Shown: one piece after another, positions 18,479-24,165 of the stretch | How positions within the stretch are numbered: the first letter of the stretch is position 1 | How the letters are laid out: the number at the start of each line of letters is the position of its first letter | From: a virus | Strand: one strand, 5' to 3' | Virus record (IMG/VR): IMGVR_UViG_3300027810_000056 | Span: 1 to 25,822 of that record | Length of the DNA: 25,822 bases | The notes under the pieces: model-generated | What the model was told of the DNA's origin: nothing | Databases searched by the model: none | Seen by the model: only the letters and a program-made list of their open reading frames with translations | Program-made: the position numbers and the translations under genes

Positions 18479-18747
18479 ATGAACAAGAATGGCATCTATC
18501 TAAGTCAGTACCACTAACATTTGTTGTAGCTATCTTCTTACAAACTGTGTCATTGGTTTGGTATGTATCGTCGATGGACAACAACATCAAGAACAACGAG
18601 AAAGAACTACTTAGACAGGATGTTCGTCTTAGTTCTTTAGAGGACGTAGTGCAGTCACAGGCCCTTACACTAGCTAGAATAGATGAAAACATAAAGTCTA
18701 TCAGAATTATGATGGAGAAGGTCTCTGACAGAAATGACCCTCGGTAA
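18475..18747 (+). CDS. Small bitopic membrane protein with coiled coil (lysis-cassette candidate)
   Basis: A 90-residue protein starting at the ATG that overlaps the previous stop (ATGA, 18475-18478). The frame continues upstream to 18382, but that would overlap the holin gene by nearly 100 bases. It has one membrane segment (VPLTFVVAIFLQTVSLVWYV, about 12-31). A charged heptad-like helix follows (NNEKELLRQDVRLSSLEDVV), ending DENIKSIRIMMEK. This is the form of small phage accessory proteins that sit beside holins; an inner-membrane spanin or holin-modulator role is possible but unproven. No lipoprotein partner was recognised. Its stop overlaps the next start (TAATG). Confidence 0.72.
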   Translation: MNEQEWHLSKSVPLTFVVAIFLQTVSLVWYVSSMDNNIKNNEKELLRQDVRLSSLEDVVQSQALTLARIDENIKSIRIMMEKVSDRNDPR

Positions 18748-19217
18748 TGGACCCTCTTACATGCATAGCAGCAGCCAGTACAGCCTATAAAGCTATCAAG
18801 AAAGGCTTCGAGGTAGGTAAGGAGATCTCCTCTATGGGGTCTCAACTGAACCAGTGGTCAAAAGCTTTGTCTGACCTTGACTTTGCACATGAGCAAGCCT
18901 CTAAGCCACCTATGTACAAGATGTTCTCTGACACACAAAGTCAGGCCTTGGAAGCTTGGTCATGTAAACAACAGGCTAAGGAAATGCGTGAGGAGCTACG
19001 TAGCTACATCAGTTTCGTACATGGTCCATCAGCATGGGATGAGATAGTACGTACTGAGGCTAAGATGCGTAAGGAACAACGAGAGCTTGTCTATAAGAAA
19101 CAAGAGTTCTTTGACAAGTGTGTTAACGTGACGTTGGGTATTCTATTTGCTTTAGCTGGAGCAGCTGGTCTACTTGTACTACTCTTCTACATAGGTAAAC
19201 AGCAAGGAAAGTTTTAA
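18747..19217 (+). CDS. Conserved marine-podophage protein with C-terminal membrane anchor, unknown function
   Basis: A 156-residue protein beginning MDPLTCIAAASTAYKAIKKG. The middle is helical and charged (AKEMREELRSYISFVHGPSAWDE style, about 77-99), followed by a Lys/Glu/Arg coiled-coil stretch (EAKMRKEQRELVYKKQEF). A single strong membrane segment lies at about 126-149 (VNVTLGILFALAGAAGLLVLL) with a short basic end. The pattern, including GPSAWDE, is familiar from unnamed proteins of marine podoviruses near lysis or structural genes. It may belong to the lysis set or anchor something to the inner membrane. The start overlaps the previous stop, and its own stop overlaps the next start (TAATG). 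Confidence 0.75.
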   Translation: MDPLTCIAAASTAYKAIKKGFEVGKEISSMGSQLNQWSKALSDLDFAHEQASKPPMYKMFSDTQSQALEAWSCKQQAKEMREELRSYISFVHGPSAWDEIVRTEAKMRKEQRELVYKKQEFFDKCVNVTLGILFALAGAAGLLVLLFYIGKQQGKF

Positions 19218-19979: not shown

Positions 19980-20687
19980 CTATAGTTTCTCCTTCATGAA
20001 TACTCTAACCCACTGAGCACAGATGTCACTACGAACAATGTCATCAACACCAAACTCAATGATCGGTACAGGTAGTAGATGCTTCTTAGCAAGATGTATA
20101 ACCTTTGACAACCCATCAGCTTCTTTTAAGTCTGACTGTTGCACATCTCCGTTAAGCACAATGGTTGACCCCTCACCCACCCTTGTCAACAGCATCTTGA
20201 GTTCGTGTGTTGTAATGTTCTGTGTCTCGTCAACGATGATGAATGCCTGTTCAAAGGAACGACCACGCATCAGGGCCAGTGGTGCCATCTCAATGTTACC
20301 TAGCTTGATGGCTGTCTCGACGGTGCCCTTACCTAGATGCTTCTCTAATACGTCAAGCACAGGTAGTGCCCATGGCATTGTCTTCTCTTGGAGGTCACCC
20401 TTAAGGAAACCTAACTCCTTACCTACAGCTACGTGAGGGCGAGTGATAACGATCTTATCTATCTCCTTAGCTGCATACTGCTTGGCTGCAAAGGTAGCTG
20501 TGACATAAGTCTTACCTGTACCAGCTGGGCCTAGCACAAAGATCTGAGTACTCTTAGTGAGTGCATCAATGAAGTCTTTCTGCTTGGGTGTACGAGGTAA
20601 CAGCACTACGGGAGGTTTCTTAGATGCACCCTTGTATGTGGTGCTACGTCGAGGGTCTTGCTTCTTCTTTGGCTGTTGTTGTACCAT
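19980..20687 (-). CDS. phoH: PhoH-like ATPase
   Basis: A 235-residue P-loop protein. It shows RTPKQKDFIDAL (32-43), Walker A GPAGTGKT (53-60), RPHVAVGKELGFLKGD (83-98) and Walker B IIVDETQN (150-157). LTRVGEGS followed by LNGDVQQSDL (178-187) forms the sensor region. This is the complete PhoH core fold without extra domains, as in marine phages. Bacterial PhoH relatives are ATPases linked to RNA handling and phosphate stress; the phage role is not settled. The basic N-terminal 25 residues could contact nucleic acid. The start overlaps the upstream stop (TAATG) with only a weak ribosome binding site, so coupling is likely. Confidence 0.94.
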   Translation of the reverse strand: MVQQQPKKKQDPRRSTTYKGASKKPPVVLLPRTPKQKDFIDALTKSTQIFVLGPAGTGKTYVTATFAAKQYAAKEIDKIVITRPHVAVGKELGFLKGDLQEKTMPWALPVLDVLEKHLGKGTVETAIKLGNIEMAPLALMRGRSFEQAFIIVDETQNITTHELKMLLTRVGEGSTIVLNGDVQQSDLKEADGLSKVIHLAKKHLLPVPIIEFGVDDIVRSDICAQWVRVFMKEKL

Positions 20688-21133
20688 TAGAGTTTAACCA
20701 ATTCTGCTTCTGTGAAAGGTATGTGGAAGAACTTCTCGCCTTTGGCTATGTACCTACCCTGAGCCTCCTTAAGGCCCTCCTGAGTAAGCTGTGTGTCCTT
20801 GATACGCCATGCCTGTTTGAAGTCAGGACGGAAGATATAAAAGTTAAGTACACCACTGTCACTTGCATACTTCTCAACGAGACGTTGCTTGCGGTGAGGT
20901 AGTCTGATCTCTTTCCAGTTAGTGTTCCAGTCACCCTTCCATGCTGTCTTAACCTCAGCCTCATTGAAGTATGTTAAACCGTTCTTCTGAGATACAACAT
21001 CAACGTTGTAGTTCTCCTCATTAGAGACGATGGTGTGACCTTTACCTTCAAGGTATGACACAAGTGCATCACGTGCTGGTGCATCATAGGCTTCGTATAG
21101 ACCACGGCTAAAAGCTTTACGTACAGGTTTCAA
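20687..21133 (-). CDS. Putative PD-(D/E)XK-type nuclease
   Basis: A 148-residue protein. The start is a TTG at 21133 that overlaps the glutaredoxin stop (TTGA) behind GGGGGTAAGG; no internal ATG exists near the N-terminus. The catalytic-like pattern is D45 in YNVDVVS, a loop, then E60-V-K62 in FNEAEVKTAW, which is D..(14)..ExK. An upstream helix with E14 (GLYEAYDAPARDALVSYL) and a strand (GHTIVS) complete the look of the fold's core. The C-terminal half (LNFYIFRPDF, then HIPFTEAE) is strand-rich. It may be a DNA-processing nuclease acting with the nearby exonuclease and endonuclease I. The fold is inferred from motif spacing only. Confidence 0.6.
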   Translation of the reverse strand: MKPVRKAFSRGLYEAYDAPARDALVSYLEGKGHTIVSNEENYNVDVVSQKNGLTYFNEAEVKTAWKGDWNTNWKEIRLPHRKQRLVEKYASDSGVLNFYIFRPDFKQAWRIKDTQLTQEGLKEAQGRYIAKGEKFFHIPFTEAELVKL

Positions 21134-21375
21134 TATTCCTTACCCCCAATAAACTCCACTAAGGATTCCAAGTCACGGTAACCACCTACAAGACTACCAT
21201 TAGATGCAAAGATCTGAGGTACAGTCTTGATGTTAGCTTCCTTCATGAGTGACAACACCCACTTGCTTGAACCTTCTTCGATGTTGTACGTGGTAAAGTC
21301 AATGTTCTTAGCCTTAAGTAAAGCCTTAGCTTTGTCACAGTACTTGCAGTCGTTACGGGTAATCATCGTATACAT
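21130..21375 (-). CDS. Glutaredoxin
   Basis: An 81-residue thiol-disulfide oxidoreductase with a CKYC active site (10-13), the cis-proline motif TVPQIF (51-56, P53) and GGYRDLE (64-70), the glutathione/helix-capping element. Length is typical for small phage glutaredoxins. It probably reduces the C-terminal cysteines of the ribonucleotide reductase encoded upstream, or replaces a host donor. GAGGGA stands about six bases before the ATG. Its last codons overlap the TTG start of the next gene. One small membrane gene separates it from the reductase, which is unusual for an electron-donor pair. Confidence 0.93.
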   Translation of the reverse strand: MYTMITRNDCKYCDKAKALLKAKNIDFTTYNIEEGSSKWVLSLMKEANIKTVPQIFASNGSLVGGYRDLESLVEFIGGKEY

Positions 21376-21600: not shown

Positions 21601-23496
21601 TTATACTAAGTCTACGATCTCACATGAGTCACCTGAACAAGCAAGTGTCTGGCTACCAGATGTGTTGTCCTCATTCTCATACTCTGAAAGCTTGGACCAG
21701 TCAATACTTTTAGGCATCACTGACTTAAGCATTTCGTAGTCTGACTTACCACAGTCTTGGTAGGGTGCCTGTTGGTACGTGTGTTCATTGAACGGTAGGA
21801 ATGACACACCTGACATCTCATCAAAGTGTTTGTATACAAAGGCACCTACCTCTAGCCATTCGTCACCCTTAACGTTGATGGTGACAGATGGTTTATGTTC
21901 ACACCAGTTGCGTTGGTACATAAGCCACATCTCTAGCTGTTCAATAGCTGTCATGTCTTTAGTGCATACAGCCCCATTAGGTGCCTTCATAGGGAAACTG
22001 AACACGGTAGTTTGATCAGGCTTGAATGCGTCTGGCTCGTGAGGGATACCTTGATCCTTCATGAACTGGGTGAGAGGATCTTTGTTATCACCTCTAACGG
22101 TGCGGATATAGTAGGGACTGTGTCTAGCATGAATCCCACTGGCACTATCAACCAGTTGTGAAACCGTACCGCTTGGCTTAACACAACTAATAGCAGCAGC
22201 AACAGGAATATCGAGAAGCTCAGACCAGACCGCATTGGTATCCACAGCAACTTGTTTAAGATGTGCAAGGGTCTTATCCAATCCTTTGTTCTTGAGGGTC
22301 ATAAGGGGGTTGTCCATGATGCCCGTTAGTGACACACCAAGTAGACGTTCTTCTTCTGTGTTAGATGTCCACTGCTTACGTAAGTATGGGAACTTAGTGA
22401 AGCTAGACTGGATCGTACCTAGGATAGTAGCTAGGCGTACCTTCTCTGATAGTGTCTCAATGGTGTCAGTTGCTCGTACCACACACTCGGTTAGGTTGCA
22501 AAACTGGCTTGGACGTAAAATTATTTCCGAACATGGATTAGTTCCGAACTCATAGTTAGAATCACGACGACCATTCAAGGCTGCTTGTTTCTTTGATGCT
22601 TCACGGTTAAAGATACCACGTTCACCTGAGCCTGATTCAACCAATGCCATCCACTCTTTCATGAAGGATAGGTTGTCTGGTTTCTCTGTATATGATACAC
22701 TGTTGTTAGCTAATGCACGTTGAGGGTTGTTCTCCCACCATGCACCTGACTTAGCTGAACGCATACGATCATCTGACAAATTTGACAAACTGATCATAGC
22801 CGAACGTCGAACTCCACCGACGACAACTACTTCACCGATCTTACACATGATGTCATGACACTCAACGGATGACAACTTACGGCCAGCTGCCTTCTTGAAG
22901 GTGTTAATGGTGAAGTTAAACAAGTCAACCAAAGGTGCAGGGCCAGAGGCACGACCACCGAATGTCTTCAAGGGTGCACCAGCTGGGCGTACCTTAGATA
23001 CATCCCACGTAGGGATCTCACCACTGTATAGGAGTGCAATCAATTGACGCAAAGACTTAGCCCAACCTTCCTTACTATCCTTGACGACGATGTTGGTCTC
23101 ACTCTCGAAGAGTTCAGGGATCTCAGGGAGCTTGGAGATGGACTGACGCTCGACACTGAAGCCAACACCAGTACCACAGAGCAAGATAAACATAGCCTCA
23201 TCGAAGGACTTAAGGTCATCTACGGCTAGGTAGCTACAGTTGTACATACATGTGTTGTCACGTTCAGCAGCAGGGCCAGCTGTCATGAGTGAACGCATAG
23301 AGGGCATCACCTCTAGGCCAAGGATGGCTTGCTCTAAGTCGTACTTAGTCTTAGGGTCAACCATGTCACGAATGACATTGACAGAGAACCGTGTCACTGT
23401 GTCATCCCATGACTCACGACCAAAACCCTCATGGTACTTAGCATACCGTGACTTGTGAATGAATGATTGATAGTCAGTTGGTAGTTGGTTGCTCAT
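21601..23496 (-). CDS. nrdJ: Class II (adenosylcobalamin-dependent) ribonucleotide reductase
   Basis: A 631-residue enzyme converting ribonucleotides to deoxyribonucleotides with a coenzyme-B12-derived radical. The active site is visible as NPCSEI (N320, C322, E324) with a second redox cysteine in QFCNLTE (C333). The first redox cysteine is probably C83 or C87 (NTCMYNCSYL). GGVRRSAMISLS (228-239) and KPSGTVSQLVDSASGIH (440-456) are class II hallmarks. The C-terminal pair CSGDSC (620, 625) relays electrons to the active site. No small radical subunit gene is adjacent, consistent with class II. Shorter than Lactobacillus RTPR (about 739). The start overlaps the DUF1127 stop (ATGA), so coupling is likely. 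It depends on host cobalamin. Confidence 0.95.
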   Translation of the reverse strand: MSNQLPTDYQSFIHKSRYAKYHEGFGRESWDDTVTRFSVNVIRDMVDPKTKYDLEQAILGLEVMPSMRSLMTAGPAAERDNTCMYNCSYLAVDDLKSFDEAMFILLCGTGVGFSVERQSISKLPEIPELFESETNIVVKDSKEGWAKSLRQLIALLYSGEIPTWDVSKVRPAGAPLKTFGGRASGPAPLVDLFNFTINTFKKAAGRKLSSVECHDIMCKIGEVVVVGGVRRSAMISLSNLSDDRMRSAKSGAWWENNPQRALANNSVSYTEKPDNLSFMKEWMALVESGSGERGIFNREASKKQAALNGRRDSNYEFGTNPCSEIILRPSQFCNLTECVVRATDTIETLSEKVRLATILGTIQSSFTKFPYLRKQWTSNTEEERLLGVSLTGIMDNPLMTLKNKGLDKTLAHLKQVAVDTNAVWSELLDIPVAAAISCVKPSGTVSQLVDSASGIHARHSPYYIRTVRGDNKDPLTQFMKDQGIPHEPDAFKPDQTTVFSFPMKAPNGAVCTKDMTAIEQLEMWLMYQRNWCEHKPSVTINVKGDEWLEVGAFVYKHFDEMSGVSFLPFNEHTYQQAPYQDCGKSDYEMLKSVMPKSIDWSKLSEYENEDNTSGSQTLACSGDSCEIVDLV

Positions 23497-23675
23497 TTGA
23501 GTTCTCTTCCTCGGTTATCTTTGTCTTCGTCTAACCACACTAGGCGGTCAATGTCTGATCTACTTAACCCAATGTCATTCAACTCTCGTGTTGTCAACAT
23601 GTTAAGTTGTTTGATGGCATTACGATGTTCCCGCCATGTAGCTAAGAAGTTCCAGTACCTACGTATCCAACTCAT
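23493..23675 (-). CDS. DUF1127 (YjiS-like) small protein
   Basis: A 60-residue basic protein. It has an N-terminal Trp/Arg segment (SWIRRYWNFLATWREHRNA), then KQLNMLTTRELNDIGLSR and SDIDRLV, which is the DUF1127 signature (L..L...eL.DIGlsR.dI). DUF1127 proteins are abundant in Alphaproteobacteria; in Rhodobacter sphaeroides one (CcaF1) acts in RNA maturation and turnover. The gene overlaps both neighbours by four bases (ATGA at each end), binding it to mazG and nrdJ in one translation unit. Its role in phage is unknown: RNA regulation or an acquired host regulator are possible. The tail (DEDKDNRGRELK) is hydrophilic. Confidence 0.86.
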   Translation of the reverse strand: MSWIRRYWNFLATWREHRNAIKQLNMLTTRELNDIGLSRSDIDRLVWLDEDKDNRGRELK

Positions 23676-23983
23676 CTATTGTCTCCATTCCCTTTAATCA
23701 CGTCACGTTCCTTACGGCTACTTAGTTTGTCAATGTTCAAGGCAGCTATCTCATCTAGGTTATAACCAATGTCATTACATATGTTAGTTAGGTACCACAG
23801 CACATCCCCTAACTCCTTGGCTACCTCATGACGATTGAATACACCGTCACGTACTTGCTTCTTAACCTTCTCTGCTACCTCACCAGCTTCCCCACATAGG
23901 CCCAGTGTTGGGTACAGAACCTTATGTGTAGCTGGGTAGATCGCAAAGCTTACAGCCTTTCCTTGGTACTCTTTAAAGTTCAT
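23672..23983 (-). CDS. MazG-like nucleoside triphosphate pyrophosphohydrolase
   Basis: A 103-residue all-helical NTP pyrophosphohydrolase. The metal-binding signature is EAGE (E32 to E35) followed by ELGD (E57, D60), with GLCGEAGEVAEKVKKQ in front and VLWYLTN behind. An ATG at 24001 would add six residues, but the ATG at 23983 overlaps the previous stop as ATGA and has AAAAGGA seven bases upstream, so it is preferred. It hydrolyses NTPs or dNTPs to monophosphates, either cleaning damaged nucleotides or lowering alarmone signals; marine phage MazG roles are debated. It sits between unknown acidic genes and DUF1127. Confidence 0.9.
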   Translation of the reverse strand: MNFKEYQGKAVSFAIYPATHKVLYPTLGLCGEAGEVAEKVKKQVRDGVFNRHEVAKELGDVLWYLTNICNDIGYNLDEIAALNIDKLSSRKERDVIKGNGDNR

Positions 23984-24165
23984 TCCTCTATCCTTTTCCA
24001 TTCTTCCATCTCTGCGTCTAGATTAAAGTAGTCATCTAAGTCAAGAAGATTCTCGTCTATCAGGAATTGTACTATGAGTAGCTCTGATATTTCGTTCTGC
24101 TCTAACAATAGTGTCAGGCCATAGTTCTCTACGAGAGCACGAAGTTTACTGTCTAAATCAAACAT
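23980..24165 (-). CDS. Small acidic protein, unknown function
   Basis: A 61-residue, strongly acidic, helical protein (FDLDSKLRALVENYGL, LLLEQNEISELLIVQFLIDE, DLDDYFNLD). A TTG six bases earlier could start it but GGTGA would be adjacent to that codon; for the ATG at 24165 GGTGA has proper six-base spacing. The element LLLEQNEI..L.VQ.Li....lDLDDYF looks conserved among small phage early-region proteins, though no family name is recalled. The stop overlaps mazG by four bases. It may be a partner or inhibitor protein, but no function is shown. Confidence 0.7.
   Translation of the reverse strand: MFDLDSKLRALVENYGLTLLLEQNEISELLIVQFLIDENLLDLDDYFNLDAEMEEWKRIEE

What the first reader, a model, noticed from the sequence alone, without database searches (positions are those of the whole stretch)
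23493..23675. DUF1127 gene translationally chained between mazG and class II reductase
Seen: a DUF1127 signature (REL.DIGLSR.DI) in a 60-residue basic protein with four-base ATGA overlaps at both ends. Known: DUF1127 proteins are common in Alphaproteobacteria, and one in Rhodobacter influences RNA processing and stress. Inference: the phage may carry it to steer host RNA turnover or to control expression of this nucleotide cassette, making it a possible uncharacterised takeover factor.
Basis: partly seen in the sequence, partly recalled or inferred. Interest (0 to 1): 0.62.

Follow-up and report, generated by a model that had tools for sequence, protein, structure and literature searches.

The report
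Phage DUF1127 gene beside ribonucleotide reductase
A tiny bacterial-type regulator gene (DUF1127) really sits in a marine roseophage between mazG and a B12-dependent ribonucleotide reductase; it is an optional, well-conserved phage version that keeps this position when either neighbour is exchanged, so it probably tunes the host during phage DNA synthesis, but how is untested.

Summary
Window 23493-23675 (-) encodes 60 aa matching Pfam DUF1127 (PF06568, E 1.2e-10, above cut-off), chained by ATGA overlaps to mazG and a class II RNR. It belongs to a distinct phage clade: DUF1127 core plus a C-terminal tail (W-L-x-E-D-K-x-x-R-G) found in 85 of 91 clade proteins and in none of about 60 host or other-phage DUF1127s examined. 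It is under purifying selection (median dN/dS 0.15). Among 87 loci, all have mazG upstream and 83 have an RNR just downstream (4 contigs end). But the gene is optional: 11/76, 9/70 and 9/67 of three RNR-anchored sets, 44/69 of a mazG-anchored set. Three different class II RNRs occupy the downstream place, divergent MazGs the upstream one, and DUF1127 is retained when either is exchanged. Mechanism is unshown. Best guess: a co-expressed mimic of host DUF1127 regulators, acting on a host sensor kinase (PhoR is the best-documented family partner) or on RNA. A dedicated MazG or RNR subunit, or a need for coupling, looks less likely. The family is known; this phage clade and its locus appear unreported in the papers searched.

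The parts
23493..23675 (-). DUF1127 gene, 60 aa
   Evidence: PF06568 E 1.2e-10; ORF; purifying selection
23508..23537 (-). codons for the phage-clade tail W47-L-x-E-D-K-x-x-R-G56
   Evidence: 85/91 clade proteins have the W[LFI]xED[KRL] tail; none of the host or other-phage DUF1127s examined do
23683..23686 (-). putative Shine-Dalgarno GGAG of the DUF1127 gene, 7 nt before ATG, inside mazG
   Evidence: sequence
23503..23512 (-). purine-rich GAGGAAGAGA inside the DUF1127 3' end, putative Shine-Dalgarno of the RNR gene
   Evidence: sequence
23672..23675 (-). ATGA overlap mazG / DUF1127
23493..23496 (-). ATGA overlap DUF1127 / RNR
23672..24001 (-). mazG, 109 aa
   Evidence: PF03819 E 1.5e-10; phrog_229 E 8.5e-42
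21601..23496 (-). class II (adenosylcobalamin) ribonucleotide reductase, 631 aa, divergent RTPR type (type 1 here)
   Evidence: phrog_367 E 6.8e-176; TIGR02505 E 4.2e-86, below the equivalog cut-off
21130..21375 (-). glutaredoxin, downstream in the same gene run
   Evidence: PF00462 E 1.9e-12
20687..21133 (-). conserved unknown protein, 148 aa (TTG start)
   Evidence: no significant family match; same position in cobaviruses
19980..20687 (-). phoH
   Evidence: PF02562 E 1.5e-64

Best explanation
The gene encodes a phage-adapted DUF1127 protein: a short helical, arginine-containing adaptor with a clade-specific N-terminal aromatic helix and C-terminal WLxEDKxxRG tail. It is an optional accessory gene of the mazG-class II RNR operon of phages that infect marine Rhodobacteraceae. 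Shown here: identity, position, purifying selection, optional presence, and retention when the neighbouring MazG or RNR gene is exchanged. Inferred: it is made together with MazG and the RNR when the phage is making dNTPs, and it acts in trans on the host, not on one neighbour. The most likely target is a host signalling protein, with the PhoR phosphate sensor kinase the best-documented partner of the family; binding would reset phosphate or stress regulation while the phage drains nucleotides. RNA binding is the next most likely activity and may coexist with it. The confidence given is for the host-signalling mechanism; confidence in the anatomy and evolutionary statements is about 0.9.
For: DUF1127 identity. 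Coding constraint: median dN/dS 0.15, maximum 0.50 over 954 pairs. Location: mazG upstream in 87/87, RNR downstream in 83/87, remaining 4 contigs end. Retention through exchange: RNR types 1, 2, 3 all occur downstream, labels change at least 11 times on the DUF1127 tree (the tree is weak, but starred branches alone force 4-5 changes for types 1 and 2); L078/L080 DUF1127 97% identical with RNRs 23% identical, L002/L068 95% and 29%; window/L028 share DUF1127 and RNR (about 0.8 DNA) while mazG differs (0.47-0.58). This argues for a target other than a particular RNR or MazG. Published: three A. tumefaciens DUF1127s and E. coli YjiS bind PhoR; proteins from S. meliloti, R. sphaeroides and E. coli complement the A. 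tumefaciens phosphate phenotype (PMC12501420); Salmonella YjiS is membrane-associated and pulls down the SsrA/B system (PMC11707872). Sampled host genomes each carry 4-8 DUF1127 genes. phoH lies in the same run of genes.
Against: No function was tested. The published DUF1127-PhoR effect represses phosphate uptake, which is not obviously useful to a phage; a phage protein might act as an antagonist, but nothing here shows that. No robust link with phoH: RNR1 set p 0.21, RNR2 set p 0.66; the strong RNR3 link comes from 9 nearly identical loci. The clade's net charge is low (median +3), weaker than expected for binding an acidic region by charge alone. In another phage the DUF1127 lies in an RNA-repair gene set, which favours RNA.
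Confidence: 0.34

Rival explanations
1. RNA-binding regulator: like R. sphaeroides CcaF1, the protein binds host or phage RNAs and changes their processing or half-life (for example with RNase E).
For: CcaF1 is an RNA-binding DUF1127 from the host family (PMC10253847). In Rhizobium phage RHph_I1_18 a DUF1127 gene lies between a CCA-adding enzyme and a tRNA-His guanylyltransferase, next to RNA ligase and polynucleotide kinase genes; in phiM12 one lies about 1.5 kb from tRNA genes.
Against: No RNA interaction is supported for YjiS (PMC12501420). No Rfam element in the window. Those other phage DUF1127s lie outside this clade in a weak tree.
Confidence: 0.25
2. Cargo of an insertion slot: the mazG-RNR junction accepts small accessory genes, and DUF1127 is one of them with a function unrelated to nucleotides, such as countering a host defence.
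For: Gene is optional; unrelated small ORFs fill the same slot elsewhere; DUF1127 appears exchanged at about single-gene scale: window/L013 97-100% across the gene against about 0.8 in mazG, window/L030 0.67-0.93 inside the gene with mostly 0.87-1.0 flanks.
Against: The DUF1127 clade was not seen outside the mazG-RNR locus in 87 loci, and keeps both neighbours in Autographiviridae-labelled CRP-403. Strong purifying selection, no sign of diversifying selection.
Confidence: 0.22
3. Direct partner of MazG or the RNR: the protein binds one of the neighbouring enzymes and modulates it.
For: Invariable neighbourhood; mazG plus DUF1127 can be the only shared block between two phages (L002/L068).
Against: RNRs from two NCBIfam equivalog types (RTPR TIGR02505, NrdJ_Z TIGR02504; about 20-29% identical) and divergent MazGs occur with nearly the same DUF1127; most related operons lack the gene.
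Confidence: 0.12
4. Translational spacer: translating the short ORF is needed to couple RNR translation to mazG; the protein itself matters little.
For: 4-nt overlaps on both sides and a purine-rich RNR ribosome-binding site inside its 3' end.
Against: Most loci without DUF1127 chain mazG directly to the RNR (42 of 51 type 1 loci within 30 nt); dN/dS about 0.15 shows the protein is selected.
Confidence: 0.05

Closest known systems
DUF1127 family PF06568 (A. tumefaciens SDPs, E. coli/Salmonella YjiS)
   Same: Core REL.DIG.SR.DI, small size, arginine content (9 of 60 here; the family mean is given as 14%, PMC12501420)
   Different: Phage clade has an aromatic N-terminal helix and a conserved WLxEDKxxRG tail; lies in a phage mazG-RNR operon; function untested
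CcaF1 of Rhodobacter sphaeroides (71 aa, RNA-binding DUF1127)
   Same: Same domain, from the bacterial family these phages infect
   Different: ccaF1 is co-transcribed with CcsR sRNAs (CIN1 locus); no Rfam element found in the window; direct sequence comparison not made
Cobavirus mazG-RNR-glutaredoxin-phoH region (SIO1, ICBM1, P12053L, CRP-4/5; Zobellviridae, Cobavirinae)
   Same: Same gene order, with the DUF1127 ORF in the same place, annotated as hypothetical or left out (SIO1)
   Different: SIO1, ICBM1 and P12053L have a different RNR (27% identical); ICBM2 lacks the gene
Other phage DUF1127s (CRP-603/HMO-2011-type, phiM12, Melnitz, RHph_I1_18, Atu_ph07)
   Same: DUF1127 domain in phages, mostly of Alphaproteobacteria
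   Different: Different loci, no WLxED tail in those examined, outside this clade in a weak tree

Membership tests
DUF1127 (PF06568) | Profile match above the curated cut-off | tested here: met
   41.4 bits against 23.3
DUF1127 (PF06568) | Small arginine-rich protein | tested here: met
   60 aa, 9 R (15%), pI 9.5; net charge only +2
Small DUF1127 proteins under 50 aa (SDP type) | Length below about 50 aa | tested here: not met
   60 aa with N- and C-terminal extensions
PhoR-binding DUF1127 regulators | Physical interaction with PhoR and control of pst genes | not testable with these tools
   needs two-hybrid, pull-down or reporter assay
CcaF1-type RNA-binding DUF1127 | RNA binding | not testable with these tools
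   needs cross-linking or co-purification of RNA
CcaF1-type RNA-binding DUF1127 | Linked CcsR-like sRNA genes (CIN1 locus) | tested here: inconclusive
   no Rfam match in the window; whether Rfam models CcsR was not checked
Cobavirinae mazG-RNR operon gene | Orthologues at the same place in classified cobaviruses | tested here: met
   SIO1, ICBM1, P12053L, CRP-4, CRP-5; absent in ICBM2

The most novel reading that the evidence does not exclude
A dedicated viral clade of DUF1127 proteins hijacks a host sensor kinase (PhoR or a relative) so that phosphate uptake or stress signalling is set by the phage during dNTP synthesis. This would be a phage-encoded modulator of a two-component phosphate system carried inside the mazG-RNR operon.
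Probability: 0.2. Interest if true: 0.72.

Novelty: new variant of a known kind. Interest (0 to 1): 0.42.

Why it matters
DUF1127 proteins are common in Alphaproteobacteria, and whether they act through RNA or through sensor kinases is unresolved. A phage version, placed in one operon and separable from host paralogues, gives a clean test case. It would also explain a recurrent 'hypothetical protein' in marine roseophages and add a possible regulator to the usual list of metabolic genes (mazG, RNR, phoH).

Tried and rejected
RNA element in the window: no Rfam match. Structure: AlphaFold2 on 21 sequences gives three helices at pLDDT 66, pTM 0.40; Foldseek against PDB has no match at E <= 0.001; by sequence only three weak PDB matches, E 0.0015 to 0.47, none convincing. 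Weak Pfam hits SAM_TNK and AbiEi_4 are below their cut-offs. Decayed copies of the gene: none in 236 loci. Coupling to phoH: not supported outside one set of near-identical loci. A host mazG/RNR-DUF1127 arrangement: none in 25 plus 29 host loci, though host sampling is small and partly pattern-biased. The phylogeny of host against phage DUF1127 is poorly resolved (60 columns, long branches), so the host donor was not identified. The CcaF1 source paper was not held. The first count of neighbours was selected on DUF1127 similarity and overstated its universality; the RNR- and mazG-anchored scans corrected this.

Full report
The finding. The window is a 25.8 kb virus record. Its nearest isolated relatives are roseophages of the Cobavirinae (Roseobacter phage CRP-5, Lentibacter phage ICBM2 and others). 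On the minus strand runs a nucleotide and replication gene set: exonuclease, endonuclease I, two small ORFs, mazG, the ORF in question, a class II ribonucleotide reductase (RNR), glutaredoxin, an unknown 148-aa protein, phoH and a DUF3310 protein. The ORF at 23493-23675 is intact, 60 codons, and overlaps mazG and the RNR by four bases each. It matches PF06568 DUF1127 at 41.4 bits (cut-off 23.3; E 1.2e-10).

Distribution. A tblastn of the protein against 50,697 phage records gives orthologues in SIO1, Siovirus americense isolates, ICBM1, ICBM3, P12053L, CRP-4, CRP-5, CRP-6, CRP-118 and CRP-403. In SIO1 the ORF lies in an unannotated gap between gp19 (MazG-like) and the RNR; elsewhere it is mostly 'hypothetical protein'. 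ICBM2 joins mazG to the RNR without it. A scan of 2.9 million viral contigs found 123 relatives, of which 80 were kept. In those 80 plus seven isolates, mazG is within 1.5 kb upstream in all 87, and an RNR lies within 900 nt downstream in 83; the other four contigs end within 400 nt.

The gene is optional. Because those loci were chosen by DUF1127 similarity, I scanned again from each RNR type and from mazG. DUF1127 was present upstream of the RNR in 11 of 76 (type 1, the window's), 9 of 70 (type 2, SIO1-like) and 9 of 67 (type 3) loci with enough flank, and downstream of mazG in 44 of 69 loci of the mazG set. Each set holds only the 80 nearest relatives of its query and includes near-copies, so these are not population frequencies. 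In most type 1 and type 2 loci lacking the gene but having mazG, mazG and the RNR are directly chained. A few hold unrelated small ORFs in the same slot. No decayed DUF1127 was found in 236 loci without it.

The neighbours change, the gene stays. The three RNRs differ deeply: type 2 meets the NCBIfam RTPR model TIGR02505 (E 7.6e-164), type 3 meets NrdJ_Z TIGR02504 (E 1.5e-155), and the window's type 1 is a divergent relative of RTPR (E 4.2e-86, below cut-off). Loci with DUF1127s 93-97% identical can carry RNRs only 20-29% identical (L078/L080, L002/L068). On a DUF1127 tree the RNR label changes at least 11 times; the tree rests on 60 columns, so the figure is indicative, but starred branches alone force four to five changes for types 1 and 2. 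The reverse also occurs: window and L028 or L026 share DUF1127 and RNR at about 0.8 DNA identity while mazG drops to 0.42-0.58. In L002/L068 the shared block is just mazG plus DUF1127. The gene also appears exchanged nearly alone: against L013 identity jumps from about 0.8 to 1.0 at the DUF1127 start codon and extends into the first bases of the RNR before the contig ends; against L030 the gene is a divergent patch in similar flanks (dS 1.1 in DUF1127 against 0.41 in mazG and 0.52 in the RNR). In CRP-403, labelled Autographiviridae, mazG-DUF1127-RNR sits as an isolated triplet between genes annotated DNA maturase A and B. Module exchange among roseophages is known (PMC8528129); the papers on these phages that I searched do not mention DUF1127, and only four held papers contain both 'DUF1127' and 'phage', none of which by title or abstract concerns a phage DUF1127.

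The protein. Over 111 distinct DNA sequences (91 proteins) median pairwise dN/dS is 0.15 and the maximum 0.50, so the encoded protein is selected. Invariant or near-invariant residues include W14, H17, R18, K22, L24, N25, L32, D34, G36, R39, I42, D43, R44, W47, D51, R55, G56. The tail W-L-x-E-D-K is in 85 of 91 clade proteins, and in none of 25 host and 6 other-phage DUF1127s from the first set, nor 29 host matches from five genomes; some host loci repeat between sets, and the sampling is small. The five host genomes searched carry 4-8 DUF1127s each, none with an RNR or mazG close by. AlphaFold2 gives three helices at moderate confidence (pLDDT 66), with no useful fold match.

Mechanism. Two activities are published for DUF1127 proteins. 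A. tumefaciens SDPs and E. coli YjiS bind PhoR and restrain phosphate uptake, and proteins from S. meliloti, R. sphaeroides (CcaF1) and E. coli complement the A. tumefaciens mutant (PMC12501420). CcaF1 binds RNA and, with RNase E, matures sRNAs (PMC10253847). Salmonella YjiS associates with the inner membrane and pulls down SsrA/B (PMC11707872). The comparative evidence here does not choose between sensor kinase and RNA. It does lower two other readings: a dedicated subunit of one RNR or MazG (the partners change), and a translational spacer (most operons do without it, and the protein is selected). I rank host signalling first because that activity is the one shared across the widest set of tested DUF1127s and fits co-expression with phosphate-demanding nucleotide synthesis; I put it at about one in three. 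The known effect is repression of uptake, which a phage may not want, so an antagonist version is possible. An RNA role is favoured by a DUF1127 in an RNA-repair gene set of Rhizobium phage RHph_I1_18.

Verdict. A real, selected, optional phage accessory gene of a known domain family, forming a distinct clade fixed to one operon position while its neighbours are exchanged. Moderately interesting and directly testable; not a new kind of system.

Noticed in passing
L438:2355-2492 (Rhizobium phage RHph_I1_18): A DUF1127 gene lies between a CCA-adding enzyme and a tRNA-His guanylyltransferase, followed by RNA ligase and polynucleotide kinase: an RNA-repair set.
   Followed up: partly
L009:2947-3165 (Roseobacter phage CRP-603): A different DUF1127 lies near the terminase small subunit gene, directly before a gene whose product resembles window ORF 18747-19217 by eye; related DUF1127s in CRP-1, CRP-2, CRP-9, CRP-345.
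   Followed up: partly
L437:2450-2668 (Methylophilales phage Melnitz): DUF1127 gene about 1.1 kb after the RNR small-chain gene in a phage of a non-alphaproteobacterial host.
   Followed up: no
mazG-RNR junction, e.g. L095-L097, L098, L130, L136: The slot is filled by other small unrelated ORFs in phages lacking DUF1127, so it behaves as a hotspot for small accessory genes.
   Followed up: partly
L007:4162-4785 (Roseobacter phage CRP-6): A 624-bp unknown gene is inserted between DUF1127 and the RNR.
   Followed up: no
L002:4001-4183 (SIO1, AF189021): The DUF1127 ORF is not annotated in the SIO1 record.
   Followed up: yes
window 20687-21133 (-): Conserved 148-aa protein between glutaredoxin and phoH with no significant Pfam or PHROG match.
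   Followed up: no
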